Assembly: GCF_000024005.1 (NCBI RefSeq)
Contig: NC_013132.1
Span: forward strand, 7,186,001-7,250,000
Direction: 5' to 3'
Origin: Chitinophaga pinensis DSM 2588
Lineage (GTDB): Bacteria; Bacteroidota; Bacteroidia; Chitinophagales; Chitinophagaceae
DNA: 64,000 nucleotides
The translations under genes were made by a program, and so were the position numbers. The notes under the pieces were generated by a model, which was not told the DNA's origin, made no database searches, and saw nothing but the letters and a program-made list of their open reading frames with translations. Positions 1,110-38,285 of the stretch are shown here, piece after piece (the first letter of the stretch is position 1; each line of letters begins with the position of its first letter).

Positions 1110-2384
1110 ATGAAACTGGATATTGTTTTAGGTCTTCAGTGGGGAGACGAAGGAAAAGGTAAGATCGTGGATGTCCTTGCACCTGCATATGGTATGGTAG
1201 CCCGTTATCACGGTGGTTCGAATGCCGGCCATACAATTGTTTTTGAAGGAAAGAAAATGGTCCTCAATACGGTACCCTCGGGTATATTCAATCAACAGAC
1301 GGCCAATATTATCGGCAGCGGTGTGGTACTGGATCTGCTGGCCTTTCATAAAGAAGTAACAGGTTTACAGGCAAACGGATTTACTGTTGCCGAATGGCAG
1401 AACCTGTCCATCTCACGCAAGGCACATCTCTTACTGCCAACACACCGTCTCATAGACAAACTCTCTGAAGAGTCCCTGGGACTGCAAAAGATCGGTTCTA
1501 CACAGAAAGGTATCAGTCTGGCGTATGCGGATAAAATGTTACGTCGTGGATTACGCGCCGGAGATATCCTCTTACCGGATTTCGAAGAAAAGTGTAAAGA
1601 GCTGTTATCGGCACATACACAACAGATAAAGACACACTATCAACAAGACATAGATACAGATACATTATATGCGGAAATACAGGAGGCACTGAAAACCGTA
1701 TTATTATTCCCCATTATCGATACAGAATCAGGTGTTAATCAATATCTCTGCAAGGGTGGTAAAGTACTGGCAGAAGGCGCACAGGGCACATTGCTGGATA
1801 TAGATCATGGTACTTATCCGTATGTCACTTCTTCCAGCACAACAGCAGCAGGCGCCTGTTCCGGCCTGGGTATCGCACCACAGAAAGTCGGCGAGGTATA
1901 TGGCATCTTCAAAGCGTATACGACACGTGTAGGCAATGGTCCTTTTCCCACAGAACTCACCGATGAAACAGGGACATTACTCCGTACAAAAGGCCATGAA
2001 TTCGGCGCTGTCACCAAACGTCCGCGACGCACAGGATGGCTGGATATTCCTTATCTGAAATATGCGATAATATTGAATGGTGTTACACAACTGGTTTTAA
2101 CGAAACTGGATGTACTACAGGGAATGGAACAGATTGCAGTATGTACACATTACAGCGAAACAGATGGCATATCACTACCGCCATATACGGCAGATGTAAC
2201 ACCTGTTTATCAGGTACTGAAAGGCTGGAATGAAGACCTGACGGGCATCCGCAGTAAAGATGAATTACCTGCAGCATGTCTTGCATACATTGCATTCCTG
2301 GAAGCGCAACTACAGCTGCCTGTCCGTTATATATCAGTAGGCCCAGACAGAGAGCAGATGATTGTGGTTCCCTTTCCAGATTAA
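1110..2384 (+). CDS. purA: Adenylosuccinate synthetase-like protein (divergent PurA paralogue)
   Basis: PurA joins IMP and aspartate using GTP in the first AMP-specific step of purine synthesis. This 424-residue protein keeps QWGDEGKGK (10-18, with the catalytic Asp13), NAGHT (38-42, His41), QGTLLDIDHGTYPYVTSS (225-242), GNGPFPTE (276-282), TKLD (331-334) and GPDR (411-414), so it is clearly in the family. Two normally invariant loops differ: the active-site motif usually GIGPxY is GISLAY (134-139), and the aspartate-binding loop usually ATTGRPRR reads AVTKRPRR (300-307). That suggests a second copy with altered kinetics or amino-acid substrate rather than the housekeeping enzyme; the alternative is ordinary lineage drift. 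It follows the Crp/Fnr gene by 88 bases and has its own operator. Confidence 0.85.
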   Translation: MKLDIVLGLQWGDEGKGKIVDVLAPAYGMVARYHGGSNAGHTIVFEGKKMVLNTVPSGIFNQQTANIIGSGVVLDLLAFHKEVTGLQANGFTVAEWQNLSISRKAHLLLPTHRLIDKLSEESLGLQKIGSTQKGISLAYADKMLRRGLRAGDILLPDFEEKCKELLSAHTQQIKTHYQQDIDTDTLYAEIQEALKTVLLFPIIDTESGVNQYLCKGGKVLAEGAQGTLLDIDHGTYPYVTSSSTTAAGACSGLGIAPQKVGEVYGIFKAYTTRVGNGPFPTELTDETGTLLRTKGHEFGAVTKRPRRTGWLDIPYLKYAIILNGVTQLVLTKLDVLQGMEQIAVCTHYSETDGISLPPYTADVTPVYQVLKGWNEDLTGIRSKDELPAACLAYIAFLEAQLQLPVRYISVGPDREQMIVVPFPD

Positions 2385-24988: not shown

Positions 24989-25031
24989 TTATGAAATATT
25001 TTGTTGTTTCATAAAATACTTCCTAGCTTTG
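24989..25031 (+). promoter_or_regulatory. Promoter with overlapping perfect palindrome, driving a tiny transcript
   Basis: TTTG (25000-25003), 20 bases, and TAGCTTTG (25024-25031) fit the Bacteroidota promoter pattern. TTATGAAA (24989-24996), ten bases and TTTCATAA (25007-25014) form a perfect 8-bp inverted repeat that encloses the -33 element, so a dimeric protein bound there would block or help polymerase. Transcription should begin near 25037. Confidence 0.7.
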
Positions 25032-25036
25032 CTGTC

Positions 25037-25105
25037 ATGAAAACAAGTACATTATATAGCCGTTCGTTATCCAGTTACTCATGGAGTAACCGGGAGGGCT
25101 TATAA
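25037..25105 (+). CDS. 22-residue serine-rich small ORF, possible leader peptide
   Basis: ATG at 25037 to TAA at 25103-25105 encodes 22 residues, seven of them Ser spread over five different codons (AGT, AGC, TCG, TCC, TCA). The ATG falls at the inferred transcription start, so it would be leaderless. GTTACTC, ATG, GAGTAAC (25074-25090) forms a perfect 7-bp hairpin inside it, and a strong terminator follows 22 bases after the stop. The order promoter, short ORF, hairpin, terminator is that of an attenuator, but the next gene rightward is a tRNA, not a biosynthetic operon. It may equally be part of a small non-coding RNA. Confidence 0.4.
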   Translation: MKTSTLYSRSLSSYSWSNREGL

Positions 25106-25127
25106 TGTTTTAAATACAAAGCTATTT

Positions 25128-25165
25128 AAACGCCTCCTGGATCAATCCAGGAGGCGTTTTTCTTT
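25128..25165 (+). terminator. Strong intrinsic terminator of the tiny transcript
   Basis: AAACGCCTCCTGGA (25128-25141), loop TCAA and TCCAGGAGGCGTTT (25146-25159) form a perfect 14-bp stem followed by TTCTTTT. It is among the best terminators in the window. Confidence 0.85.
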
Positions 25166-25317
25166 TGCCCCTGTGTATCGTTAACCACTCTCACAAGGGC
25201 TGCTTCCGGGACTGATAAAGGTTTTATAAAATAATACGAAATGCATATTCCGTAAAAGGATTTCTCATGTTAAAAACTACGTGTATTCATCTATGTTATA
25301 GTTAATTAAACATATTT

Positions 25318-25401
25318 CCTCCCATGATGAAATTGGTATACAAGAGGGATTTAAAACCCCTTGCCGTTATCGGCGTGCGAGTTCGAGTCTCGCTGGGAGG
25401 A
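25318..25401 (+). tRNA. tRNA-Leu (anticodon TAA), atypical
   Basis: A class II cloverleaf fits: acceptor CCTCCCA (25318-25324) with TGGGAGG (25394-25400) and discriminator A, anticodon loop TTTAAAA giving TAA, a long variable arm (TGCCG/CGGCG) and a perfect T arm GCGAG-TTCGAGT-CTCGC. No CCA is encoded. Oddities are a C at position 1, a very weak D stem and an A-C mismatch at the base of the anticodon loop. Relative to the Leu unit at 25505, stems differ by paired changes, which argues that folding is or recently was under selection. It is probably an accessory rather than housekeeping tRNA. Confidence 0.7.
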
Positions 25402-25407
25402 CTGTTT

Positions 25408-25493
25408 GGAGGATAGGCAAATGTTGGTTTGTTGCGGCATCCTGCTAAGATGTTCCGGTGATACCGGTGAGGGTTCGATTCCCTTGTCCTCCG
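25408..25493 (+). tRNA. tRNA-Ser (anticodon GCT), atypical
   Basis: Acceptor GGAGGAT (25408-25414) pairs with GTCCTCC (25486-25492) with one wobble and discriminator G, as usual for Ser. D stem GCAA/TTGC, anticodon stem GCATC/GATGT with loop CTGCTAA (anticodon GCT), long variable arm TCCGGTG..CACCGG-like and T arm GAGGG-TTCGATT-CCCTT complete a class II cloverleaf. Position 8 is A, where U is almost invariant. It is separated from the Leu units by 6 and 11 bases. Confidence 0.7.
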
Positions 25494-25504
25494 CTTTGTT
25501 TTAT

Positions 25505-25587
25505 TCTCCTGTGATGGAATTGGTATACAAAAGGGATTCAAAATCCCTTGCCTTTATGGTGTGCGGGTTCGAGTCCCGCCAGGAGAA
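25505..25587 (+). tRNA. tRNA-Leu (anticodon CAA), atypical
   Basis: Acceptor TCTCCTG (25505-25511) pairs perfectly with CAGGAGA (25580-25586), discriminator A; anticodon stem AGGGA/TCCCT is perfect around TTCAAAA (anticodon CAA); T arm GCGGG-TTCGAGT-CCCGC is perfect; the variable arm is long. The D stem is weak, as in the 25318 unit, with which it shares GATGGAATTGGTATACAA-like sequence through the D arm. A decayed copy lies at 38087. Confidence 0.75.
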
Positions 25588-25594
25588 CTTTTAT

Positions 25595-25638
25595 GGAGGA
25601 TAGGCAGATAGTGGTTTGTTCCTTTACCTTCTACCTCC
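25595..25638 (+). pseudogene. Truncated tRNA-Ser-like remnant
   Basis: GGAGGATAGGCAGATAGTGG at the start matches the first 20 bases of the tRNA-Ser unit at 25408 with two or three changes, and the stretch closes with ACCTCC, which can pair with the beginning. The anticodon and T arms are missing. It is the fourth, broken unit of the array. Confidence 0.6.
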
Positions 25639-25980
25639 ATTTCAACCCATTATGGATATAATATAGCTTTAAAACATCTCGACTATTTTCTTTTCACCAG
25701 TGGCGGGCCATTTTAAACCAGCAGCATATTTTGCGCATTAAATAACAAATGAGCGCTGATGTGAAGTATAAAATACTGTTACATAAAATCTGTTTATGTC
25801 TGCAGAATCTTTAATAATGTATACATCCGATGTCTGGAGAACATCATAAATGTCAACAAATACAAAATAGCGGGAAGCAATAAAATAATGCAAATGATAT
25901 CAATTATTGAACCAACGAATAGAAACTAGCAGTTAGTGCTGGGAAAATTAAATTAATGTAAGCAAAGAAACAAAATGCTT
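25639..25980. other. AT-rich stretch without a recognisable gene
   Basis: No reading frame with family features, no strong promoter box and no hairpin stands out in these 340 bases between the tRNA array and the small minus-strand frame at 25981. Confidence 0.5.
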
Positions 25981-26220
25981 CTATGCCATAAATAAAATAT
26001 TCAGAGAGTCTTGCTGGAACACCATCACAATAATAAACATACAATCTACAAAAGCCATCGCTAACAGCGTGAGAAATATAAAGCGCAACTGTATCAATTT
26101 AAACAAAAAATTGGTATAATAAAAAATTGATCTTAAATTCAACTCATGTTGATCACCCCAAAAACCAGCGGGCTCTCTAATATATACCCATATTTTTCTA
26201 TTGATGGAGGATCTTTTCAT
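25981..26220 (-). CDS. Hypothetical 79-residue membrane protein
   Basis: An ATG-started frame of 79 codons: a basic N-terminus (MKRSSINRKIWVY), then a long hydrophobic segment (FIFLTLLAMAFVDCMFIIVMVF, about 46-68 as two parts) and a short tail. There are no overlapping longer frames, but no recognisable family, promoter box or ribosome site either. It could be a small membrane protein of the accessory region or chance in AT-rich DNA. Confidence 0.3.
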   Translation of the reverse strand: MKRSSINRKIWVYIREPAGFWGDQHELNLRSIFYYTNFLFKLIQLRFIFLTLLAMAFVDCMFIIVMVFQQDSLNILFMA

Positions 26221-26273
26221 ATACTCATTACGGCTATATTTATTCGATGAATATATTCTTAATCCGGTTCAGG

Positions 26274-26432
26274 TTAAATACTCCTTATGCAATTTGTCCC
26301 AAAAAGAATCGCAAGCCGTACTACAAGTACCAGGCCAATTAGTAAAAGCTCGCTTAATAACGAGCTAAGTTTAATTACCGCTATCTTATACACCTGCTTT
26401 ATTCGTTCATCCCTATTCAGATTCGATCCCAT
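26274..26432 (-). CDS. Hypothetical 52-residue membrane peptide
   Basis: ATG at 26430-26432 to TAA at 26274-26276. The peptide has a charged head (MGSNLNRDERIKQVYK) and one hydrophobic helix (LLSELLLIGLVLVVRLAILF), the build of a single-pass small membrane protein. It runs in the same direction as the 25981 frame, 53 bases before it, so the two could be one transcript. There is no homology that I recognise. Confidence 0.35.
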   Translation of the reverse strand: MGSNLNRDERIKQVYKIAVIKLSSLLSELLLIGLVLVVRLAILFGTNCIRSI

Positions 26433-26705
26433 ATTCTCGACCAGTTATTTTCGCCCAACGGTGCATATGTAATTGCTGCACTTTTGTTTTCCATAGTTTT
26501 TTTTCATTGGATTGTATGGGCAATAGGAATTTTTAAACTTTTCCTGTATGTGATTTACAGGAATCATTCATAAGATGAAAGTGAGTGCTAAAGTAATAAA
26601 CATTAACTCCATCATTCCGGGGTAATGGATATAAAATTACTTATAATGTGTCTTCCCTTTTAATCGCTTACTTAAAATTTGAGGAAAATATAAGATCAGT
26701 AATCA

Positions 26706-28298
26706 TTGAAAGCATTAGCACAAATATTATTTATTATCATATGCCTGATATTCATAGCTGCAATTGGCAGATTAATTTTTGGAATACCAAACAGTAAGCT
26801 GGATTCGGTGTTTAATGAAAATGATGTGTTTTTTAACCGAAGACTAAAGTTGGAAAGAGTCCTCGGAAAAAGGTTTGGGAATACTCTTCTTTTACCTTCG
26901 ACTATTTCCATTTCAATCTTCCTACTAACAACCTTCGGCCCTAGCAGAGATTACCCCTTTATTGTGGCGAAAATAAACCATATGCTTTTTATAATCGTAT
27001 GTTGGAAGGCAGTAAGTTATAAAAACCTAATTATAAGGAAAAAGACACTTATCAAATGGAAAGCATTTTTACTTGTTACGGTCGCCTTATCAATTTCACA
27101 TCCATTTTTATTACCATTAGTTTTGTTTCAGCATATTTTTTTCTTCAATGGATGGCTACATCACTCACAATTAGTTTCGCGAATTATGATGTGTCAGATA
27201 TCTTTTATGATATCATTTAGTTTATCAAATCTGGTCCTTCCAGAATATTCGATAAACATTTTATGTTCAAATAGCTACGTAATCCTTTTATTTTCAATAG
27301 TCTTTTCACATTATTTAATTCCGGGTATAGGAAAAGTACGCATAGGAAAAAAATGGTATTCATGGATTAAGAATGATCAATTACAGTATCTTCTTTCATC
27401 AGCCTACATCTGGGGATGGTGCAGGTTTCTTCCTGAAAAAAAGGTCATAAATTTTATAAGTCGATTAGATGGATATACTATTTACCTGAAGACAGCTGCA
27501 GTTATGGTTGAATGTAGTACGCTGTTTATTATGTTGGATGGACATTTGGCAATTTATATCACCCTTTCGGTATTGTTATTCCAACTATCAGTATTCGTTT
27601 TTTCCGGAATATTCTTTTTTGAGAATATTCTGGTTTTGTTTACTTTGCTTACAATAATTCCCCAACTGGACGACTCCTATTTCGGTATAAAAAGCTTTTT
27701 TATTTCTTTATTAATCCTAATCTTCCCGGTCAACGGATTGTGTTGGCAGCCTTATAAATTAAGTTGGTGGAACGCTCCCTTAGCTGGCCGTATTCATTGG
27801 TTAGTGAAAGGAAGGTCAGGGAAAATATACGAATTACACAATGATTGTTTTGATGCTTACGAAAGGTTATTCGGACGTGTCTATGGCTACTTTTTAACTG
27901 ATGAAAATATTCCATACTATCATTTAGGTGAGATATTTGAGGAACAGGTTAAGTCAGATATATTAGAAACAAAAGGTAATTCAAAGCTAGTGGCAGAAAT
28001 TAAACTGAAACACGGAAAGTATATGCGGAATCGCCAGGCGGAGCAAGTCCATGACGTGTTTATAATGAAATATGTTGGTAAACTTTCGAAAAGAAAAGAA
28101 AACCTATTTGTAAAGTTCGTTAATAGACTCGCTTTCCCCGGTGGACAATGGTACTATTGGAGCGATTATCCAAAGTATGAGAACCAAGAAGGTATCGAAA
28201 AGCTTCTGATACAGTTTGATGAAGTCTACTTCACTGGAAAAGAATTCAAAAAGATAAACACCTATATTATAAAAGAAATTGACATGTCGCTCGTATGA
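26706..28298 (+). CDS. Multi-pass membrane protein with cytoplasmic C-terminal domain, unknown
   Basis: A 530-residue protein with about nine or ten hydrophobic helices over residues 1-355 (for example AQILFIIICLIFIAAIGRLIF, LSVLLFQLSVFVFSGIFFF, FISLLILIFPVNGLCW) and a soluble C-terminal part of about 170 residues rich in Lys, Tyr and Trp. The general plan, with QLQYLLSSAYIWGWCRFL in the middle, is reminiscent of HTTM-type membrane proteins, but I cannot confirm a family. The only usable start is a TTG at 26706, preceded immediately by an in-frame stop; no ATG occurs before residue 90. It overlaps the next gene by ATGA. First gene of an AT-rich operon with two glycosyltransferases. Confidence 0.6.
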   Translation: MKALAQILFIIICLIFIAAIGRLIFGIPNSKLDSVFNENDVFFNRRLKLERVLGKRFGNTLLLPSTISISIFLLTTFGPSRDYPFIVAKINHMLFIIVCWKAVSYKNLIIRKKTLIKWKAFLLVTVALSISHPFLLPLVLFQHIFFFNGWLHHSQLVSRIMMCQISFMISFSLSNLVLPEYSINILCSNSYVILLFSIVFSHYLIPGIGKVRIGKKWYSWIKNDQLQYLLSSAYIWGWCRFLPEKKVINFISRLDGYTIYLKTAAVMVECSTLFIMLDGHLAIYITLSVLLFQLSVFVFSGIFFFENILVLFTLLTIIPQLDDSYFGIKSFFISLLILIFPVNGLCWQPYKLSWWNAPLAGRIHWLVKGRSGKIYELHNDCFDAYERLFGRVYGYFLTDENIPYYHLGEIFEEQVKSDILETKGNSKLVAEIKLKHGKYMRNRQAEQVHDVFIMKYVGKLSKRKENLFVKFVNRLAFPGGQWYYWSDYPKYENQEGIEKLLIQFDEVYFTGKEFKKINTYIIKEIDMSLV

Positions 28299-29389
28299 AA
28301 GAAAATAAAAAAATCCTTATCGGGATTTGCGGCGCAGGATTAGGACATTCTCTACGTCAACTCCCAATTATTGAATATTTTATAGAAAAAGGTTGTGAGA
28401 TCATTCTATTTTGTTTTGACCAAAGTCTGAAGTTTTACAAAGATCGATTCAATGGCATTGAGGTTTTCGATGTTTCCGTTATATGGACTGAGGGTGGTCC
28501 CGACGGAATAGACTTTCTAAAGTCATCGCGGGCAGAAAGAAATACTTGGGATAACCTAAAAAAAAGATTTGATGCCTATGGTCGGGTACAGGAACTATTT
28601 AGCGGAGGGCCAGATCTGGTAATAAGCGACTTCGAATTTGCTTCAGTACAATTCTCCTATTACTATAACTGCGAATTAATAACCCTCGATCAACAAAGTA
28701 AGTTTCTCGGCTATAATTTTGAAGATATCGATGGATTTTCCGCAAGTGAAGAAAAAAAAAGGCTACGTTTTTTTGTCCCAAAGGCCCAACTGCGCATAGC
28801 TACGTCATTTTATAAGATTGACAAAACCGTCGACCCCGATTTTAGTGTAAAAATAATACCTCCTATAATAAGACCATCCATAAGAGTGCTGCAAAAAATT
28901 TATGAAAATCTAATTGTTGGATACTTCTCTCCCTATGAGTCTGATAAATTCGACTTGAGCCACATTGCGTCGGTTTTGTCGGAATTTAGCCAGTTTCAAT
29001 TTTTAATCTTCAACAATAAACTAGAAGAAAGAAAGTCTTCAAATGTTTCTTTTTCAAAATACAATGCGAGCAATTTCGAACAAGCGCTGTCAATTGCATC
29101 AGCAGCTATCTGCAATGCTGGACATACATTGATTTCTGAATTAATGTACCTGAATATCCCTTGCTATATCATTCCGTTTGATACCTATGACCAACAATGT
29201 TGCGCAAATGTTATAGACAAAAACGGTTTTGGCATAAAAGCCACTGACATCAACAGCGAATCTGTACGCCTATTTTTGGAGAATATCGAGGTATACCGCG
29301 AAAATATAAAAGGATCTTCCCTACTTTATCATGACCGTGACGGATTGGATGAGCTGAAAATTATATTTGAAAAAAAGCTTCAATCGTGA
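28295..29389 (+). CDS. Glycosyltransferase of the GT28/MurG-like fold
   Basis: The 364-residue protein starts KKILIGICGAGLGHSLRQLPI (split for length), the glycine-rich first strand of GT-B glycosyltransferases of the MJ1255/VC2487 kind, and has the donor-binding C-terminal segment AAICNAGHTLISELMYLNIPCYIIPF with the expected GGxxxxxE-like NAGHTLISE. It would move a sugar from a nucleotide donor, acceptor unknown. Start ATG overlaps the previous stop by four bases (ATGA) and its own stop overlaps the next start (GTGA), so the three genes are coupled. Confidence 0.75.
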   Translation: MKENKKILIGICGAGLGHSLRQLPIIEYFIEKGCEIILFCFDQSLKFYKDRFNGIEVFDVSVIWTEGGPDGIDFLKSSRAERNTWDNLKKRFDAYGRVQELFSGGPDLVISDFEFASVQFSYYYNCELITLDQQSKFLGYNFEDIDGFSASEEKKRLRFFVPKAQLRIATSFYKIDKTVDPDFSVKIIPPIIRPSIRVLQKIYENLIVGYFSPYESDKFDLSHIASVLSEFSQFQFLIFNNKLEERKSSNVSFSKYNASNFEQALSIASAAICNAGHTLISELMYLNIPCYIIPFDTYDQQCCANVIDKNGFGIKATDINSESVRLFLENIEVYRENIKGSSLLYHDRDGLDELKIIFEKKLQS

Positions 29390-30297
29390 CTACAACGACA
29401 ATCTCAATAGTTATTCCCACATTAAATAGAAGAAATTTTCTGGAAAAATGTCTAAGATGTATCGCGGAACAAGATACTGTCAGATTGACAAAAGTTATTG
29501 TTGTCTATAACTATTCTACAGATGTTCCAATGGCACACTTCAGTCAGACATTTTCCAACAAATTAAATTTTCTGAAAGTTGATGGGAAGAGTTCTATCTA
29601 CAAAAGGAATTATGGAGCCAGCCATATAACTGATGACTATATCGCTTTTCTTGATGACGATAGTTATATTGATTCCTCTTGGATTGATTGTCTGCTTAAC
29701 GAATTTGATAACAATTCAACGACTTTGGCACAGGTTGGTAAGATTATATGGTGCGGGAAACTAAATTCTCTGAGAAGTCAGTCTCTATTTTCTTCGGTAC
29801 TGCCCCTTATGAGACAAAAAACATATGACCACCGCCATAAAATTTTTACATCGGATGAGTATTCAAAAGAGATCAACAACTTTTTTCATTTAGGAAACTT
29901 GGGAAATGTAAAACATTTGTCTACACATCTTTCAGCCGGCAACTGCGCTATGAGCAGAGAACTATTTGAAAATCTAGGCGGATTTGACATCAATTATATA
30001 ATCCAATACGATAAAGAACTTGCATTCCGAATGTTGAAACGTGGCCATGCTATCATTTATAATCCCAATATGATTATCTCCCACGATCACGACAATTCAT
30101 TTAAGAGGTTAGCTATTCTAAGCGTAAAGACTCCTAAATACCAAATCCTATTGCAAAAACGATACCCCGATCTGACAAAATTTTCCCTCACCAATACCGA
30201 AACGATAAAATTAACGTGGTATGAACATTTAATCAAGGGACTAATCAATTTTATAAATAAAGGGACTCTCAGGTTTTATGAAAAAAATAATTATTAG
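29386..30297 (+). CDS. Glycosyltransferase family 2
   Basis: A GT-A fold enzyme of 303 residues: ISIVIPTLNRRNFLEKCLRC (6-25 approximately), a KRNYGAS motif, the metal-binding FLDDDSYID (about 85-93), and later GGFDINYIIQYDKELAFRMLKRG, which is the ED-type catalytic base region of family 2 enzymes. It starts with GTG at 29386, overlapping the previous stop. Probably adds a sugar to an envelope glycan or lipid-linked intermediate together with the GT28-like neighbour. Confidence 0.85.
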   Translation: MTTTTISIVIPTLNRRNFLEKCLRCIAEQDTVRLTKVIVVYNYSTDVPMAHFSQTFSNKLNFLKVDGKSSIYKRNYGASHITDDYIAFLDDDSYIDSSWIDCLLNEFDNNSTTLAQVGKIIWCGKLNSLRSQSLFSSVLPLMRQKTYDHRHKIFTSDEYSKEINNFFHLGNLGNVKHLSTHLSAGNCAMSRELFENLGGFDINYIIQYDKELAFRMLKRGHAIIYNPNMIISHDHDNSFKRLAILSVKTPKYQILLQKRYPDLTKFSLTNTETIKLTWYEHLIKGLINFINKGTLRFYEKNNY

Positions 30298-30973
30298 GCT
30301 GGATGACGTTGGCGGCAATGATTGGCAATCATATATGGTTATGAATAGTTTCTTAACCTTAAAAATCCCAGTTTCATATCAAGTTGTACCAGATTGGTTA
30401 ACGTATGAGAGGGCTGAACATATAAAAAAAATGGTTTCTGAATATCCCGAATATGCTGAAATCGTACAGCACGGATATAAGCATGTCAGCTATCACAGAA
30501 CTGGCCAACAAAAGAAATTTGAGTTCGGTTTTTCCAGGTCTTTAGCCGAAGAATATAATGATATTCTTTCGGGCAATCTGATATTAAGAAAATACTTTGG
30601 GGATTATTTGACTATGGCATTCACAGCACCCTGGGAAGCTCAAAGCCAAACTACCTTGCAGGCATTAAAGTTGGTAGGCATAAATATCCTGTTAGCATCC
30701 CCAATGTCACTTTCATTATTGGGTTATAGCCCAGAAGTCCGTACGATATTATTTGACATTGATACGAGCAGAAAGATTGATGGCTTCAGGCTTCAACGCC
30801 CCCCCCAAGATATAATAAACGACATCAATAAAAGTACTAAGGATTTGATAGGGATAGTACTCCATGCAAAGGAGTTAGAATCTGTAGACCTCTTTTACGA
30901 TCTCGCCTCTCGCCTAAAACAGCTGGAGAAAAATGGTTTTTCTTTCGCCTTGATCAAAAACCTTTTTTATTGA
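30278..30973 (+). CDS. Polysaccharide deacetylase-like protein (NodB fold)
   Basis: The 231-residue protein has IIIRLDDVGG with D9/D10, VQHGYKHV with H65 and H69 (the H-x3-H metal pair of NodB-type deacetylases) and FTAPWEA. This gives the Asp-His-His zinc site expected of a sugar deacetylase, in the short DUF2334-like form. There is no signal peptide, so it would act on a cytoplasmic or membrane-linked sugar. It starts 20 bases inside the end of the GT2 gene. Confidence 0.75.
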   Translation: MKKIIIRLDDVGGNDWQSYMVMNSFLTLKIPVSYQVVPDWLTYERAEHIKKMVSEYPEYAEIVQHGYKHVSYHRTGQQKKFEFGFSRSLAEEYNDILSGNLILRKYFGDYLTMAFTAPWEAQSQTTLQALKLVGINILLASPMSLSLLGYSPEVRTILFDIDTSRKIDGFRLQRPPQDIINDINKSTKDLIGIVLHAKELESVDLFYDLASRLKQLEKNGFSFALIKNLFY

Positions 30974-30998
30974 TGTTTAATTAATAGAAATAATTTGT

Positions 30999-31730
30999 AT
31001 GGAAAATCCAAAGAATTCTATAAAAAACGATATAGATAATATCTTCTGGTCTTCGAACCTATCTAATATATATAGATTCACCAAACAACGTTTTTGGGAA
31101 AGGGAAACAGAAAATCATGAAAAATCGATAGCCATAGACGGCCTAAATTCAGTGGGAACTACGTGTAGGCGAACTGAAAGCGTCAGCGAACATTCCTGGC
31201 ATTTGGCGGATATTTGTCTGATCTTAGCTCCGAAATATCCAAAACTGGATTTGCAGCTCTGTGTAACATTGGCAATTCTTCATGACAAACTAGAAATTAT
31301 AACAGGGGATTTTGACCCGTTAGGACGCTATGGAGATGGCTTAGATACTCATGCTTTTGATCCAATAAAGAGGCAACAAAAGGCCAATGCAGAAGAAAAT
31401 GCCTTGCTAGAATATCTATCGATGTTGAGCATTCCTGAAAGATCTTATCACGAATTACTATTCAGGCAGATCTTAGACCTGAGTACGTCCGAGGCTCTTT
31501 TTTTGAAGGCACTTGATAAAATTCATCCGTTGATCTATGTCATTCAGAAGAAAAACGGAGCTATGGAAGACGCCCACATACATTTTACCCTAAGATACTC
31601 CGGGCAATTCAAACAATATTTCCCTGAATTAGAACCTTACTACAGGGAACTTTCACGAAGGTTGATAGAAAGTGTAAGTTCCTATAGAAATGTGGATATT
31701 CAAATATTAAAACATCTTCTGCATGAATAG
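30999..31730 (+). CDS. HD-domain phosphohydrolase, YfbR/HDDC2-like
   Basis: The 243-residue protein has RRTESVSEHSWHLADICLIL (58-77) and LHDKLEIITGDFDP (94-107), the H...HD...E arrangement (H65, H95-D96, E99) of the small HD hydrolases that remove phosphate from deoxynucleoside 5'-monophosphates. An additional DK in ALDKIHPL supplies the last metal ligand. Start ATG at 30999 is 25 bases past the deacetylase gene. A nucleotidase next to a nucleotide kinase inside a glycosyltransferase operon is unusual and suggests that a nucleotide or nucleotide-sugar is being reshaped. Substrate is not shown by sequence. Confidence 0.75.
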   Translation: MENPKNSIKNDIDNIFWSSNLSNIYRFTKQRFWERETENHEKSIAIDGLNSVGTTCRRTESVSEHSWHLADICLILAPKYPKLDLQLCVTLAILHDKLEIITGDFDPLGRYGDGLDTHAFDPIKRQQKANAEENALLEYLSMLSIPERSYHELLFRQILDLSTSEALFLKALDKIHPLIYVIQKKNGAMEDAHIHFTLRYSGQFKQYFPELEPYYRELSRRLIESVSSYRNVDIQILKHLLHE

Positions 31731-32232
31731 TGATCAAATAAAAATTGCATTGTCAGGTAAGTCTGGGTCGGGTAAAACTGAAATAGCCAAATTCCTAGCA
31801 AAAAACTACAATCTGCGCATTTGCCATACGGGCGCTCTTGTTAGAAAATTGGCAATTCAATATTTTGCATCAGAATCAAAAGATATACTCCAAAAAATCG
31901 ATGATTCATTTAACAATATCGAGAGAGGAGTATGGTTAAAAGCTGCGTTAAGAGAGATTGACAATAACACGAGTCATATTGTTATTGACAGCCTAAGATA
32001 TATCGAAGACTACGAATATGCAAAGCGGAATGGTTTCTCTATCTGGAGGATCGAATGCGAACAAAATTCGCGATATGATCGACTTAGGTCAAGGGGTCAA
32101 CTCTTTTCTACACAAAACGAAATGCATTCAAGTGAATGCGACCTTGACGGATATCCCGTGGATGTCCTTATCACCAACAATTCAAACAGTCTTATAAAAC
32201 TACATGAAATCATTCAAGCAGTTATTAAATAA
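31723..32232 (+). CDS. P-loop nucleotide kinase-like protein
   Basis: A 169-residue protein with Walker A GKSGSGKTE (12-20), a base-binding-like DSLRYIEDYEYAK (about 87-99) and a lid RYDRLRSRG (about 114-122), in the size and order of dNMP kinase or dephospho-CoA kinase-like enzymes. It overlaps the HD gene by 8 bases and is the last gene of the operon; no clear terminator follows. Together with the HD enzyme it could set the phosphorylation state of one nucleotide pool. Which nucleotide is unknown. Confidence 0.7.
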   Translation: MNSDQIKIALSGKSGSGKTEIAKFLAKNYNLRICHTGALVRKLAIQYFASESKDILQKIDDSFNNIERGVWLKAALREIDNNTSHIVIDSLRYIEDYEYAKRNGFSIWRIECEQNSRYDRLRSRGQLFSTQNEMHSSECDLDGYPVDVLITNNSNSLIKLHEIIQAVIK

Positions 32233-32515
32233 AATTCTTTGACTAGGATTCGACTTTCGCAATCATGGTTCATTTGAGAATTTTAATCGAATTTTGAAGA
32301 TGCCTGAAAACATACAAAAAAACGCAAAATCCTAACACCATGTGAATCAGATAAATAAAATCTTACGAATGGCGTCCGCAAAATGTCGAAATATACTTTA
32401 TAAAAGTCCTTACAAATGTAGAACTAGAAAAACTCTAAAGTTTTAAAGTTTGCGCAGAGTAAAGTCATAATTTTACGCGCTTTTGCATCTTACCCCACCA
32501 TCTAAATGCTATTGA
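32233..32515 (+). other. Intergenic gap at the end of the AT-rich operon
   Basis: These 283 bases hold no frame that I can support and no convincing terminator. A loose promoter-like region (TTTG then a T-rich stretch ending CTTTTGCATC near 32480-32490) may serve the lipoprotein gene at 32516. Confidence 0.4.
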
Positions 32516-33226
32516 ATGTTCAACAGATTATCTTACATTATCGGACTCACATTATTAACGCTGGTTATCTTTAGTTGTTCAAGTCCTAACGCCCCAACAG
32601 ACGAAAAGACGAAGTCACCTACCAGCAACAACTACGATATTTTGAGTGAAGAAAAATATGAGACAAGTGGCAAGGCTCAACTTTTGGAATATGCGGTTTA
32701 TAAAGATAGTATCTATACAAAAGTCGCCTTGGAAAAGATCGTCTTAGAAATCTATAACCTTAATCGGGATAAAAATATTTTCAAACAACATGACGCTCCA
32801 ACTGTTATTGGCGTCTATTTATACACATCCCAAAACGCATTTAAAGATAGGGCTGAATGGATAGCCATGTTAACTAAAGGACCATATGATTCAGAACCCA
32901 GGATTAGTTTTAATGATTTCAAGATAACTGCACTAAATGGTCAGAATGATAGTTCGAAAACTAACGATGAAATCGAACTAGAGAAACTTAAATCATATCT
33001 TCAGGAAAGAGGTTTAGAATTATGTACGTTTGCTGATACACTAAAAAAGGTCGAGCTTGACAACATTCATAAAGCTGATGCAAAATATCCTGATTATGGG
33101 GATAAGCATATGGCTATGATCAAACAATTAGATACTCAATTTTATGAATCACTGAAAAAGAAGCATAAAATGAACGAAAATATAATCACTAAGGTTGCCA
33201 TTTTCGCCATGTCTTATTGTAAATAA
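32516..33226 (+). CDS. Hypothetical lipoprotein
   Basis: The 236-residue product has a lipoprotein signal: hydrophobic IIGLTLLTLVIF followed by lipobox FSC with Cys21 and SSPNAPT. The mature protein is charged and mainly helical, without a fold or motif that I recognise. It has its own gap on each side and GC content a little above that of the preceding operon. Probably anchored in the inner leaflet of the outer membrane. No function proposed. Confidence 0.65.
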   Translation: MFNRLSYIIGLTLLTLVIFSCSSPNAPTDEKTKSPTSNNYDILSEEKYETSGKAQLLEYAVYKDSIYTKVALEKIVLEIYNLNRDKNIFKQHDAPTVIGVYLYTSQNAFKDRAEWIAMLTKGPYDSEPRISFNDFKITALNGQNDSSKTNDEIELEKLKSYLQERGLELCTFADTLKKVELDNIHKADAKYPDYGDKHMAMIKQLDTQFYESLKKKHKMNENIITKVAIFAMSYCK

Positions 33227-33368
33227 TCATACACTATCCATTCAAATTATTTTAACCACGTTCCCCACAGGGAATGAAAGCATTCAGATATACTCTGAAG
33301 GCTTTTCCACTTTAGATTGGTTGTACAAATAAACCCAACCCTTGTTGAGCCAGATAAAATAAGAAAAC

Positions 33369-34167
33369 ATGGATAATAATATTCTTCAACATAATCTTCT
33401 GTATGCATGTGGATATCAAAAGGTACAAAGCAGCGAACATTACTTTCCCGAACATGCTTTAGGGATCATGCTTTCAGGGGAATCGTATTATTTCACCAAT
33501 GAGGGGACATTTGTGATGAATAAAGATGCCATATGTCTGATGCGCAGAAATCAGTTATTCAAAAAGCTGATCAAAATGGAGAAGCACCTTCATTAATATG
33601 CATATTCATAGACCAAAATACTTTACACAAATATGCAGCAGAAAATAATATACCCAAACAAGGTTTGTATAAAGATAAAGCTTTAATAGACCTGACGGGG
33701 AATGTATTTTTAAAGGGGTTCTTTGACTCATTATTGCCATATCTTAATGAACCGAAAAAATTACCGAAAAGATAGCGGCGCCTAAAACGCAGGAAGCAAT
33801 TGAGCTATTGTTACAAACAGGAGATATATTCCAGCATTTCCTGTTTGATTTTCAGGAACCGCATAAGATAGATCTGGAGACGTATATGAGTCATAATTAT
33901 AAGTATAATATCCCGCTGCTATCCTTTGGTAAACTTACCGGGCGGAGTCTCTCTACTTTTAAAAGAGATTTTACAAAGATATTCGATACAACTCCTGAAA
34001 AATGGTTGCAGAAAAAACGTTTGGAACAAGCTCATTATCTTATTTTAAAAAAGAAACAACGTCCTTCAGATATATATCTTGAAGTGGGATTTGAGAATCT
34101 ATCTCATTTTTCTTTTGCATTTAAGAAACAATATGGGATGACTCCTACGGAGTTGACAGAACAATGA
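33369..34167 (+). pseudogene. AraC family regulator broken by two frameshifts
   Basis: Three overlapping frames together give one normal AraC regulator: a cupin-like N-terminal domain from the ATG at 33369 (HYFPEHALGIMLSGESYYF, CLMRRNQL), a middle part in another frame (CIFIDQNTLHKYAAENN, FLKGFFDSLLPYLNE) and the C-terminal double HTH in the third frame (LLSFGKLTGRSLSTFKRDF, DIYLEVGFENLSHFSFAFKK). Frame changes fall near 33571-33580 and in the A run at 33755-33760 (CCGAAAAAATT). Both lie in A-rich tracts, so a sequencing error is possible, but two independent shifts in one gene favour true decay. A strong terminator follows. Confidence 0.8.
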
Positions 34168-34205
34168 AAAAACGCCTTCAGATTTGCGTCTGAAGGCGTT
34201 TTTGT
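34167..34205. terminator. Bidirectional intrinsic terminator
   Basis: AACGCCTTCAGA (34171-34182), loop TTTGCG and TCTGAAGGCGTT (34189-34200) with A run before and T run after. It separates the AraC remnant from the converging rhamnosidase gene and can work on both strands. Confidence 0.85.
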
Positions 34206-34237: not shown

Positions 34238-37200
34238 CTATTGCTTCACTATCGTCTTACTGACAACTTTATTTCCGATAGTAACACTTACAATATAGAC
34301 ACCGGCAGGCAGCGCAGACAAGTTGAACTGCTGACCACTATAAATTTTCTGTGCAGGACTTACCAGCATACCAGTTGCATTATAAATACGCATATAAAGT
34401 TTCTCTTCTTTTTTACTGGTCACTTTCACTGTTATCATGTTTGCGACAGGGTTAGGATCTAATGCAAGAGCGGAGGTATTTTCTGTACTGGCTGACGCCG
34501 TCCCCGCAGTAAAAGTCCACTGTCCATTCACTTGTCCTGTATTTGACCATTGATGCACCTGTCCTCCACCTGAAACACCATTCACCTGCAATACTTTCCC
34601 ACTATGTCTGGCAATGATTTTATAGTATCCATCATCGGTCGCGACGATGATAAAGTTCTGTTGAGGCTCCACCGGATCATGGTAGGGATATTGAATTACA
34701 TTAGTACCATTCAAAAGAGAAGCGGTATTTACGTCCAGCGATTTACCGCTGTGTTTTGCAAGGATCTTGTAATTCCCATCACCAAGATGCGTAAATACAA
34801 ATTGTTGGTTAGCGTTACCATTGTATTCAGAATGAATAACACTGGCGCCATCGGCAGTAGAAGCACCATTTACATCCATCTGTAATCCACTGGCTCTGTT
34901 ACGTATAAAATACGTACCCGACAGGTTGGTTACACCGTTCGTCAATACCCGTATAGATGTCGTTCTATCATGTAGCGCTGACCAGGTAATACAGTTATTA
35001 TTAGCAGTCAGCGTTTCCGTCTGACCTGTAAAATTATCATCCGCATATAGTATTACCTTATAACCTTCCGCTACTACCAATGAAGAAACAGCGTCATCAG
35101 TGATACCTCTTGCCTGCATCTGTGCCAGTGTATAGTTACCAACAGGCAGACTAACAGCATTTCCGCTATAATTGCAATCCATATAAGTGATCACCGGGTC
35201 TGTACTTGTGAATGGCCGCGCAGTGAATTGCCAGCTTCCTGGTGTCACTTTAAATTGCACCGATTTGTCATCCTGCCGGAAGAATGTAACACCATTCACA
35301 CCACCTGAAAAAGTACCATTTTTCCATACAGTAACACCACCAACCTGAATCTCAGCAACAAGCGTAGAGAAGATATCCTTTGGCACACTAACGATGGCAG
35401 TCGTACCTGAAGGTGCAATCAGGCTTTGTGTGAAGCTGTTGCTACCGAGAGAAAAGCTGGCGGAGATATTCCCTTTAACACTTGGTATCAGGCCGGAATA
35501 CTGTGTAACACCTCCGGGCTGTGGTGCAAATATAAACTCCGCATAAGCGGGCTGTGTTGGACGAATGCCCAACATATAAGCACTCATTACGTACAACGGC
35601 CCCGCTGACCATGCATGATTATTGCTGGAATATCCTGCATTACTATTGGCCTCTGTAAAATCTTCCCACAGGGTAGATGACCAGCTGTTAATCATCGGCG
35701 TAAAACGATTCTTCATACGTGTAATTGCAGCAGTTGGATCATACCTGAAAAGTGCTTCTTCGATATACATCTCCTGGTAAGGACCTGCATCATTTCTGCT
35801 TCTTAAGACACTTAATGCACCTGCTTTCTGCTGATCATTGGCTAGACCGGTCAATAAAGCCCAGGCATTACTTCTGTCGTCTACTACAGCGGAAGACACA
35901 TTACCGGATACATAGGCACGTAATGCATCTTTCCAGAAATAATTATTAAAGTTATTCTTCACTTTTGTCTGCAAACTCTGATAATACGTTACATCAGTAG
36001 TCTGACCTAAAAGACCTGCCGTATTAATGGCAGTCTCCAGAACGGAAATATAAAGTGCGTTGAATACAGTGTTGGCACTACCCACTGGTAAAGCCCCTAT
36101 ATTAGTACCCCAGTCGATCCAGTTCCATGCATCACTTTGTAAAAGGAGCATACCATCTGCATTAGAACAGTTGACACAAAACTGAATGTATTTCTTTAAC
36201 TGTGGATAGATTTCCTGTAACAACGCCCTGTCTCCGCTATACATATAGTATTTCCAGATCATAGCCACTGCCGCAAGGTTCTGATCAGGCAGATGAAAGC
36301 TGGTACCTGGTGCTGTCGTGTAAAGGGAGCCATTTGCCTTTTGTGTACTCATCAGTTCCCGGAAAGCTTTACGCGTCAGTTTATTTACACTGGTATCGTA
36401 TAAGTAGCATGAGTAAAGAATCTGTTCAGATACATCTCCCCACCACTGGCCACGTTCGCGGTCGGGACAATCATAGTACTGATCCCTCATACATACCCTC
36501 GAGGTGTTTTTAGATTTTGTCCATAAAGTGTTCAACGCTACATCAGAAGAATTAAACTGGCCAATGATGTCTGCATTGTAACTGGTCTCCCGGTATTTCA
36601 GATCCAGTATCTGTATCGTACCAGTTACATTGGTAAACTCATAGGTGACGGTATGATTACTCGAATTTTGCCAGGCCAGACACTCAAATTCCTGCTCACC
36701 GGCTTTGGTAATATACTCCTGCCAGTAATGCCTGTTTACAATGATCTTAACCTTCACGCCTGCGGGCGCATTGACGCGCAAATAAGGACGTAATTGAATG
36801 TTGGTACCAACAGTTCCAGTGATGGTCGTATTTGCTGTAATAGATGTAGGTATTGTATTCTGATAATTGCTTAAGCCAGCTTCTTTCCAGAATGGAATAC
36901 CCCGCGGTACGAGCGAATTCCACGGACCAATTGGCGGAACGCCTTTCTTTACTGCCGCTGACCAGGATGCATCGTTAAAACCTACGCTGTTCCAGCCGGC
37001 AGGTTCATTTGCAGCATTGTAGGAAACCGGGAATGCGATCCATTTGTAATCTTGTCCGTTCAGAATTAACTGGGTTGTAGCGGCAAAAGAAGGGTGAACA
37101 GTGCACTTCCAGGTATCATCTGACACTACCACGGAACCAGCATCGAATAATAAACCGCCATTGCCGACAGCCCTCTCTGAATAACCATTCTGTCCACCTT

Positions 37201-38086: not shown

Positions 38087-38170
38087 TCTCCTGCGATGAA
38101 ATTGGTATACAAAAGGGATTTAAAGCCACCTTGCTTTGATGGTGTGCGGGTTCAAATTCTGCCAGGAAAA
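38087..38170 (+). pseudogene. Decayed tRNA-Leu copy
   Basis: This stretch matches the tRNA-Leu(CAA) at 25505 through acceptor, D arm and first half of the anticodon arm (shared GAAATTGGTATACAAAAGGG), and the match continues upstream (CGCTTTnnTTTATTCTCCTG). The 3' half of the anticodon stem is rearranged (AAGCCACCTT), position 8 is C, the T stem needs two wobbles and the acceptor has a mismatch. It cannot be a normal tRNA. Orientation is the same as in the 25-kb array. Confidence 0.8.
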
Positions 38171-38285
38171 CTTTGTAGAGATAAGCAAATATTGGATAGC
38201 ATTGGGATATAAAAGGTATTCTCCCCTACCTTTTATTGTTGAGGATTTTAGTCTTTCCAGGAGAACTTTTATCGAGAATATGCGC
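38171..38285 (+). repeat. Further remnants of the tRNA array
   Basis: GTAGAGATAAGCAAATATTGG is a degraded match to the Ser-like unit start at 25595 and 25408, and CCAGGAGAACTTTTAT (38257-38272) repeats exactly the 3' end of tRNA-Leu(CAA) plus flank at 25579-25594. The order Leu, Ser-like, Leu 3' end suggests an old copy of the whole array. Confidence 0.65.

What the first reader, a model, noticed from the sequence alone, without database searches (positions are those of the whole stretch)
26706..32232. AT-rich, fully overlapping six-gene operon joining glycosyltransferases with nucleotide enzymes
Membrane protein, GT28-like, GT2, NodB-like deacetylase, HD phosphohydrolase and P-loop kinase are linked by ATGA, GTGA and 8-20-base overlaps. 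Base counts by hand give 27% GC at 29401-29460 and 25% at 31021-31080, against about 43% at 36001-36060. I know of no described system with this set. It may build an unusual glycan or nucleotide-derived small molecule, or act in defence.
Basis: partly seen in the sequence, partly recalled or inferred. Interest (0 to 1): 0.75.

Follow-up and report, generated by a model that had tools for sequence, protein, structure and literature searches.

The report
Glycan genes joined to nucleotide enzymes
A foreign-looking stretch of a bacterial genome carries four genes that probably build a modified sugar product, followed by two nucleotide enzymes whose readable relatives come with a different, nucleoside-splitting type of protein, so it looks more like two small gene modules placed end to end than one new pathway.

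Summary
All six genes are real reading frames in one AT-rich run (35.9% GC; window 44.1%). They are not fully overlapping: genes 4 and 5 are 25 bases apart, and that gap separates two modules. Genes 1-4 (orphan membrane protein with 4 known members, faintly HTTM-like; GT1-type and GT2 glycosyltransferases; DUF2334/NodB-type deacetylase) look like a small glycan or glycolipid module. Genes 5-6 are an HD nucleotidase-like enzyme and a deoxynucleotide-kinase-like protein. A pattern scan of about 85,000 species genomes gave four full-length relatives of gene 5 whose surroundings could be read (two Acidobacteriota, one Streptomyces, one Novosphingobium). All four have a kinase (adjacent in three) and the same large protein, which carries a PNP nucleosidase-type domain (domain seen in three; the fourth contig ends first). 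None has a relative of genes 1-4 nearby. That protein was not detected in this genome. The run follows a tRNA array, with decayed tRNA copies 12.6 kb on; one same-genus genome has the array without the run. Best reading: an acquired strip of two modules. One shared nucleoside-glycan pathway, or defence, remains possible; the surroundings of the closest gene 5 relatives could not be read.

The parts
26706..28298 (+). g1: orphan multi-pass membrane protein, 530 aa, TTG start, possible distant HTTM-like core (about residues 203-346)
   Evidence: ORF; no Pfam family for it, no NCBIfam family; 4 proteins found incl. itself; HHalign to HTTM score 34.5, 0 of 120 block shuffles reached it
28295..29389 (+). 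g2: GT1-type glycosyltransferase (Glyco_trans_1_3, MJ1255/VC2487-like)
   Evidence: PF13528 E 7.5e-32; TIGR00661 E 4.8e-34 but below its cut-off
29386..30297 (+). g3: GT2 glycosyltransferase, GTG start, DDD motif
   Evidence: PF00535 E 4.6e-18; sequence 'FLDDDS', its metal role recalled
30278..30973 (+). g4: DUF2334 / NodB-superfamily deacetylase-like
   Evidence: PF10096 34.5 bits, above cut-off 26; LDD and HGYKH motifs in the sequence, metal role and NodB kinship recalled
30974..30998 (+). 25-base gap between the two modules
30999..31730 (+). g5: HD_3 / YfbR-like nucleotidase
31723..32232 (+). g6: P-loop (d)NMP-kinase-like protein
   Evidence: phrog_139 deoxynucleoside monophosphate kinase E 1.9e-23; AAA_18 E 2.6e-12; 38% and 34% identical to the kinases of L004 and L006
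25318..25588 (+). tRNA-Leu(taa), tRNA-Ser(gct), tRNA-Leu(caa) array at the left edge of the AT-rich run
38088..38283 (+). two decayed tRNA-Leu-like copies (38088-38180, 38222-38283), not called as tRNAs

Best explanation
A horizontally acquired, AT-rich strip at a tRNA array carries two modules placed end to end and possibly transcribed together. Module A (g1-g4) most likely adds sugars to a membrane-bound acceptor: g2 and g3 transfer two sugars, g4 removes an acetyl group from one of them, and the polytopic g1 handles or modifies the lipid or the finished product in the membrane. Module B (g5-g6) is a nucleotide-handling pair. The kinase phosphorylates and the HD enzyme dephosphorylates a (deoxy)nucleotide; in the four readable relatives the pair goes with a protein bearing a PNP-superfamily (nucleosidase-type) domain that is not detected here. 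Shown: gene structure, families, composition, tRNA context, the module B association in four loci. Inferred: acquisition, co-transcription, substrates, reaction directions, and that the modules are functionally separate.
For: The only gap lies at the A/B junction. In 4 of 4 full-length HD relatives the same large protein follows (PNP_UDP_1 domain seen in L004, L005 and L006; in L003 only its start, before the contig ends). A kinase is adjacent in 3 (L003, L004, L006) and about 4.5 kb away on the other strand in 1 (L005, 22% identical). No relative of g1-g4 in any of the four at E 1e-4. The PNP protein was not detected in the window or the genome. g1 was found in 1 of 198 order genomes and the g4 protein in 1 of 395 class genomes, the own one each time. 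g4-like domains lie in glycosyltransferase/ABC clusters on both Manganitrophus plasmids opened, of four that matched. GC step and tRNA copies; G585 has the SDR gene and tRNAs but not the run.
Against: The closest HD relatives (P0006-P0008, 46-51%), which group with g5 in the tree, and a 99% relative (P0005, 6-kb contig) come from contigs I could not read, so a glycan-linked version is not excluded. g5 starts only 25 bases after g4, so the six could still be one transcription unit. Two of the four comparison loci are short (7.5 and 8.1 kb). The PNP domain itself is unseen in L003, and the L005 kinase is neither adjacent nor close in sequence. DUF2334 as a family is widespread (rings in 7 of 14 control genomes), so g4 is rare only as a sequence. 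No integrase was recognised by eye among the listed neighbouring ORFs, and no clean empty site was shown. The HTTM link of g1 has an HHalign probability of 13%.
Confidence: 0.55

Rival explanations
1. One pathway: the six genes make a nucleoside-containing glycolipid or nucleoside antibiotic (in the manner of tunicamycin-type compounds, recalled), with GTs and deacetylase building the sugar part and the HD enzyme and kinase trimming or activating the nucleotide part.
Against: No radical SAM, ligase or acyltransferase family was seen among the six (g1 has no family). The four readable HD relatives have no relatives of g1-g4 nearby.
Confidence: 0.2
2. Module B, or the whole strip, is an anti-phage system that alters the nucleotide pool or the cell surface.
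For: Acquired-looking strip at a tRNA. The partner PNP proteins of L004, L005 and L006 hit PADLOC models PDC-M60C and PN-superfamily Effector (best E 4.4e-20). PNP (PF01048) is listed as a (d)ATP-degrading/cell-death defence domain (PMC10952713, one passage). L006 carries a tyrosine recombinase about 1.4 kb upstream of its HD gene.
Against: The effector-like partner is not detected here. No PADLOC hit for g1-g5, and for g6 only kinase/AAA parts of several models. PADLOC was run on the six genes and on eight proteins of L004-L006, not on other neighbours.
Confidence: 0.17
3. Plain strain-specific surface-polysaccharide cluster whose two last genes are incidental salvage enzymes; nothing unusual.
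For: GTs and deacetylases are common in such clusters (recalled); relatives of g2 occur in 48 of 395 class genomes, own included, at E 1e-8; DUF2334 rings in 7 of 14 control genomes.
Against: g1 was found nowhere else in 198 order genomes and close relatives of g4 nowhere else in 395 class genomes; full-length relatives of g5 are few. No recognisable sugar-nucleotide synthesis, flippase or polymerase family among the eight proteins of the run scanned (g1, without a family, could be one).
Confidence: 0.08

Closest known systems
HDDC2 / YfbR 5'-deoxynucleotidases (HD_3)
   Different: 18-26% identical over the aligned part; an N-terminal extension of about 50 residues; g5 and P0006-P0008 share a 7-residue insert before H65. 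Foldseek alone gave no match at E 0.001 or better (best 3.9e-3)
HD - kinase - PNP-domain cassette seen in L003-L006 (no published name found)
   Same: HD and kinase, adjacent in three of four loci, HD 38-43% identical over most of the length
   Different: The PNP-domain protein is not detected here; glycan genes stand in front instead
Phage deoxynucleoside monophosphate kinases (phrog_139, PF21448)
   Same: g6 matches phrog_139 over 166 residues, E 1.9e-23; intact P-loop
   Different: Short (169 aa), PF21448 itself only E 0.047
MJ1255/VC2487 glycosyltransferases (TIGR00661) and N-acetylglucosaminyl phosphatidylglycerol deacetylase (NF053788)
   Same: g2 E 4.8e-34 to TIGR00661; g4 E 0.0024 to NF053788
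   Different: Both below the curated cut-offs (118.1 of 195.9 bits; 17.4 of 280 bits), so not members
HTTM (PF05090) membrane proteins
   Same: HHalign aligns residues 203-346 of g1 to the HTTM core, score 34.5
   Different: No Pfam hit; about 180 further residues after that core

Membership tests
HD_3 / YfbR-type 5'-deoxynucleotidase superfamily (g5) | Profile match above curated cut-off | tested here: met
   PF13023 65.4 bits (cut-off 22.5), PF12917 36.3 bits (cut-off 25.9)
HD_3 / YfbR-type 5'-deoxynucleotidase superfamily (g5) | Metal-binding H...HD...D set conserved | tested here: met
   H65, H95, D96, D173 invariant in 20 of 20 rows of A2; their role is recalled
HD_3 / YfbR-type 5'-deoxynucleotidase superfamily (g5) | 5'-deoxynucleotidase activity | not testable with these tools
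   needs enzyme assay
5'-deoxynucleotidase YfbR equivalog (NF003009) | Score above curated cut-off | tested here: not met
   20.9 against 122 bits
HD-kinase-PNP cassette | HD orthologue next to kinase | tested here: met
   g5 and g6 overlap by 8 bases; kinase 38% and 34% identical to L004 and L006
HD-kinase-PNP cassette | PNP-domain protein in the same locus | tested here: not met
   no tblastn match in the window (best E 0.96) and none in the genome at 1e-3; the genome search had no positive control
Known anti-phage systems in PADLOC-DB | Genes matching a system's models | tested here: not met
   0 families for g1-g5; g6 hits only kinase/AAA parts of dCTPase, VakA and others
MJ1255/VC2487 glycosyltransferase (TIGR00661) | Score above curated cut-off | tested here: not met
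   118.1 against 195.9 bits
DUF2334 (PF10096) | Score above curated cut-off | tested here: met
   34.5 against 26 bits
HTTM (PF05090) for g1 | Profile match | tested here: inconclusive
   no hmmscan hit; HHalign probability 13%, P 0.002, above all 120 block shuffles and the reversed alignment; a five-protein HTTM alignment gave only probability 4%, and P0002 and P0003 alone scored 19.6 and 16.0, within the shuffles; no other membrane families were tried as controls

The most novel reading that the evidence does not exclude
HD nucleotidase, (d)NMP kinase and PNP-domain protein form an undescribed mobile nucleotide-based immune cassette. In this genome the nucleosidase has been replaced by an orphan membrane protein with glycosyltransferases and a deacetylase, so that the nucleotide signal or its breakdown now controls, or is built into, a surface glycan.
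Probability: 0.1. Interest if true: 0.75.

Novelty: new variant of a known kind. Interest (0 to 1): 0.38.

Why it matters
It separates a real but composite locus into parts that can be tested. The more general lead is the rare HD-kinase pair that recurs with a PNP-domain protein in loci of three phyla, once near a tyrosine recombinase. If that set is a defence or nucleotide-salvage cassette, it would be a new use of the HD-nucleotidase and PNP families. The orphan membrane family (4 members found) also has no described function in the libraries searched.

Tried and rejected
g1 structure: model mean pLDDT 43.7 from a 4-row alignment; Foldseek best E 2.0, so nothing is drawn from it. PDB profile search with A1: 0 hits up to E 10. 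Viral contigs: no relative of g1; only distant HD proteins (4 loci, 24-34%). Plasmids: no g1 or g2; g3 only in 2 records at 27-28%; HD only below 32% identity (14 records). Phages: 4 distant HD records. PDB by sequence: none for g4 or g2, weak nucleotide-kinase hits for g6.

Class sampling for HD: 23 of 395 genomes, own included, match A2 at E 1e-3, but apart from g5 itself (342 bits) the best match is 56.7 bits, so these look like other YfbR-like proteins. 1 of 399 genomes in the class of the L004 genome at E 1e-25 (that genome itself). 0 of 131 in family f88, chosen by a guess from genome size and GC that it might hold Fibrella; that empty answer shows nothing.

g2 neighbourhoods: the nine best other-genome matches (47 other genomes matched) were read out to about 8-9 kb on each side, except L140 with only about 1 kb before its match; no relative of g1 or g3-g6 at E 1e-3.

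Clean empty site: not obtained. G585 keeps the left flank, but its order beyond the tRNAs differs. One recalled Bacteroidota-type promoter consensus has no exact match in the window; sigma-70-type matches number 30 against 24.6 (sd 5.1) in shuffles.

Rows left out: A2 holds 19 of the 33 hits plus the window (P0005, P0013, P0025 and P0027-P0037 left out). The tree leaves out P0005 and P0013; 17 of its 33 inner branches are drawn open, that is weakly supported. Papers: searches; only one paper opened (PMC10952713, one passage); the rest seen as listings and starts of abstracts.
Full report
WHERE IT IS. The window is 7186001-7250000 of a single-contig genome of 9,127,347 bases. From memory that size is that of Chitinophaga pinensis; no call names it.

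OBSERVATION. Overlaps are 4, 4, 20 and 8 bases, but g4 and g5 are 25 bases apart, so the run is tight but not fully overlapping. Composition is as counted: 35.9% GC over the six genes against 44.1% for the window; the eight 1-kb bins from 26001 to 34000 are all at 37.3% or less, and the lowest bin outside 25001-34000 is 39.2%.

CO-OCCURRENCE. A pattern scan of genome contigs (described by the tool as 84,980 species; the window's own genome may be left out) gave 66 loci encoding some HD relative, of which four are near-full-length relatives at 38-43%: L003 and L004 (Acidobacteriota MAGs), L005 (Streptomyces cylindrosporus), L006 (Novosphingobium). Relatives lacking both peptide patterns would be missed. 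In L003, L004 and L006 a g6-like kinase follows directly (in L003 within the same reading frame); no other locus has a g6 relative at E 1e-4. In L005 a DNMK-like kinase (22% identical to g6) lies about 4.5 kb away on the other strand, beside radical SAM and PurA-like genes. In all four the same large protein follows. Its C-terminal PNP_UDP_1 domain is seen in L004 (where the protein is split into two ORFs), L005 and L006; in L003 only the first 70-odd residues precede the contig end. None of the four has a relative of g1-g4 at E 1e-4 in the 7.5-20.7 kb held. That PNP protein was not detected in the window or the genome (without positive control). So, in the loci that can be read, the pair recurs with a nucleosidase-type protein, not with glycosyltransferases of the g2/g3 kind.

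LIMITS. g5 groups with P0006 (96/87 support) and less surely with P0007 and P0008 (93/89, not starred) in a poorly resolved tree. Their contigs, and that of the 99% relative P0005, could not be read, so a glycan-linked form remains possible. L003 and L004 are short.

ORIGIN. The AT-rich run begins just after tRNA-Leu, tRNA-Ser and tRNA-Leu genes (25318-25588). Two decayed tRNA-Leu-like copies lie at 38088-38283, 12.6 kb on. A same-genus genome, G585, keeps the SDR gene and tRNAs and then has other genes, not the run. This fits acquisition at a tRNA hot spot. No integrase was recognised by eye among the ORFs listed at 23000-48000 (they were not all scanned by profile), no clean empty site was found, and the right boundary is not fixed.

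MECHANISM. Most likely module A makes a small deacetylated glycan or glycolipid at the membrane, and module B interconverts nucleotides; both are inferred from families. The 25-base gap at the module border and the other partner of the pair argue that the six are a composite. The defence idea gains only indirect support: the partner PNP proteins match PADLOC PDC-M60C and PN-superfamily Effector models, and PNP is listed as a (d)ATP-degrading defence domain (PMC10952713, one passage). The one-pathway idea has a parallel in nucleotidases of nucleoside-antibiotic clusters (PMC11592144, start of abstract in the listing).

VERDICT. Real, rare, probably composite. No paper on this set or on the HD-kinase-PNP cassette appeared, which cover only the held open-access library and only those terms.

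Noticed in passing
L003 6048-7487, L004 1800-4958, L006 9848-13107: Conserved order HD - (d)NMP kinase - PNP-domain protein with a conserved N-terminal part of about 370 residues without a Pfam hit; L006 lies near a tyrosine recombinase.
   Followed up: partly
L005 9878-15861: Streptomyces version: HD and PNP protein facing a radical SAM gene, a PurA-like gene and a DNMK-like kinase; may be a separate nucleotide pathway.
   Followed up: partly
L003 5841-7241: HD and kinase lie in one reading frame, and the kinase part has an unusual P-loop region; possible fusion or assembly error.
   Followed up: no
window 25594-25620: A 27-base copy (89%) of the 5' end of tRNA-Ser right after the tRNA array.
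   Followed up: no
window 33350-34170: AraC-type regulator that seems to be in pieces: an ORF at 33808-34167 carries the HTH domain, and 33533-33775 may be part of the same gene.
   Followed up: no
window 27604-27633: Thirteen-pair hairpin followed by T-rich DNA inside g1, of terminator-like form.
   Followed up: no
window 1110-2360: A PurA (adenylosuccinate synthetase) relative, 33% identical to the PurA-like protein of L005; probably the ordinary housekeeping gene.
   Followed up: no
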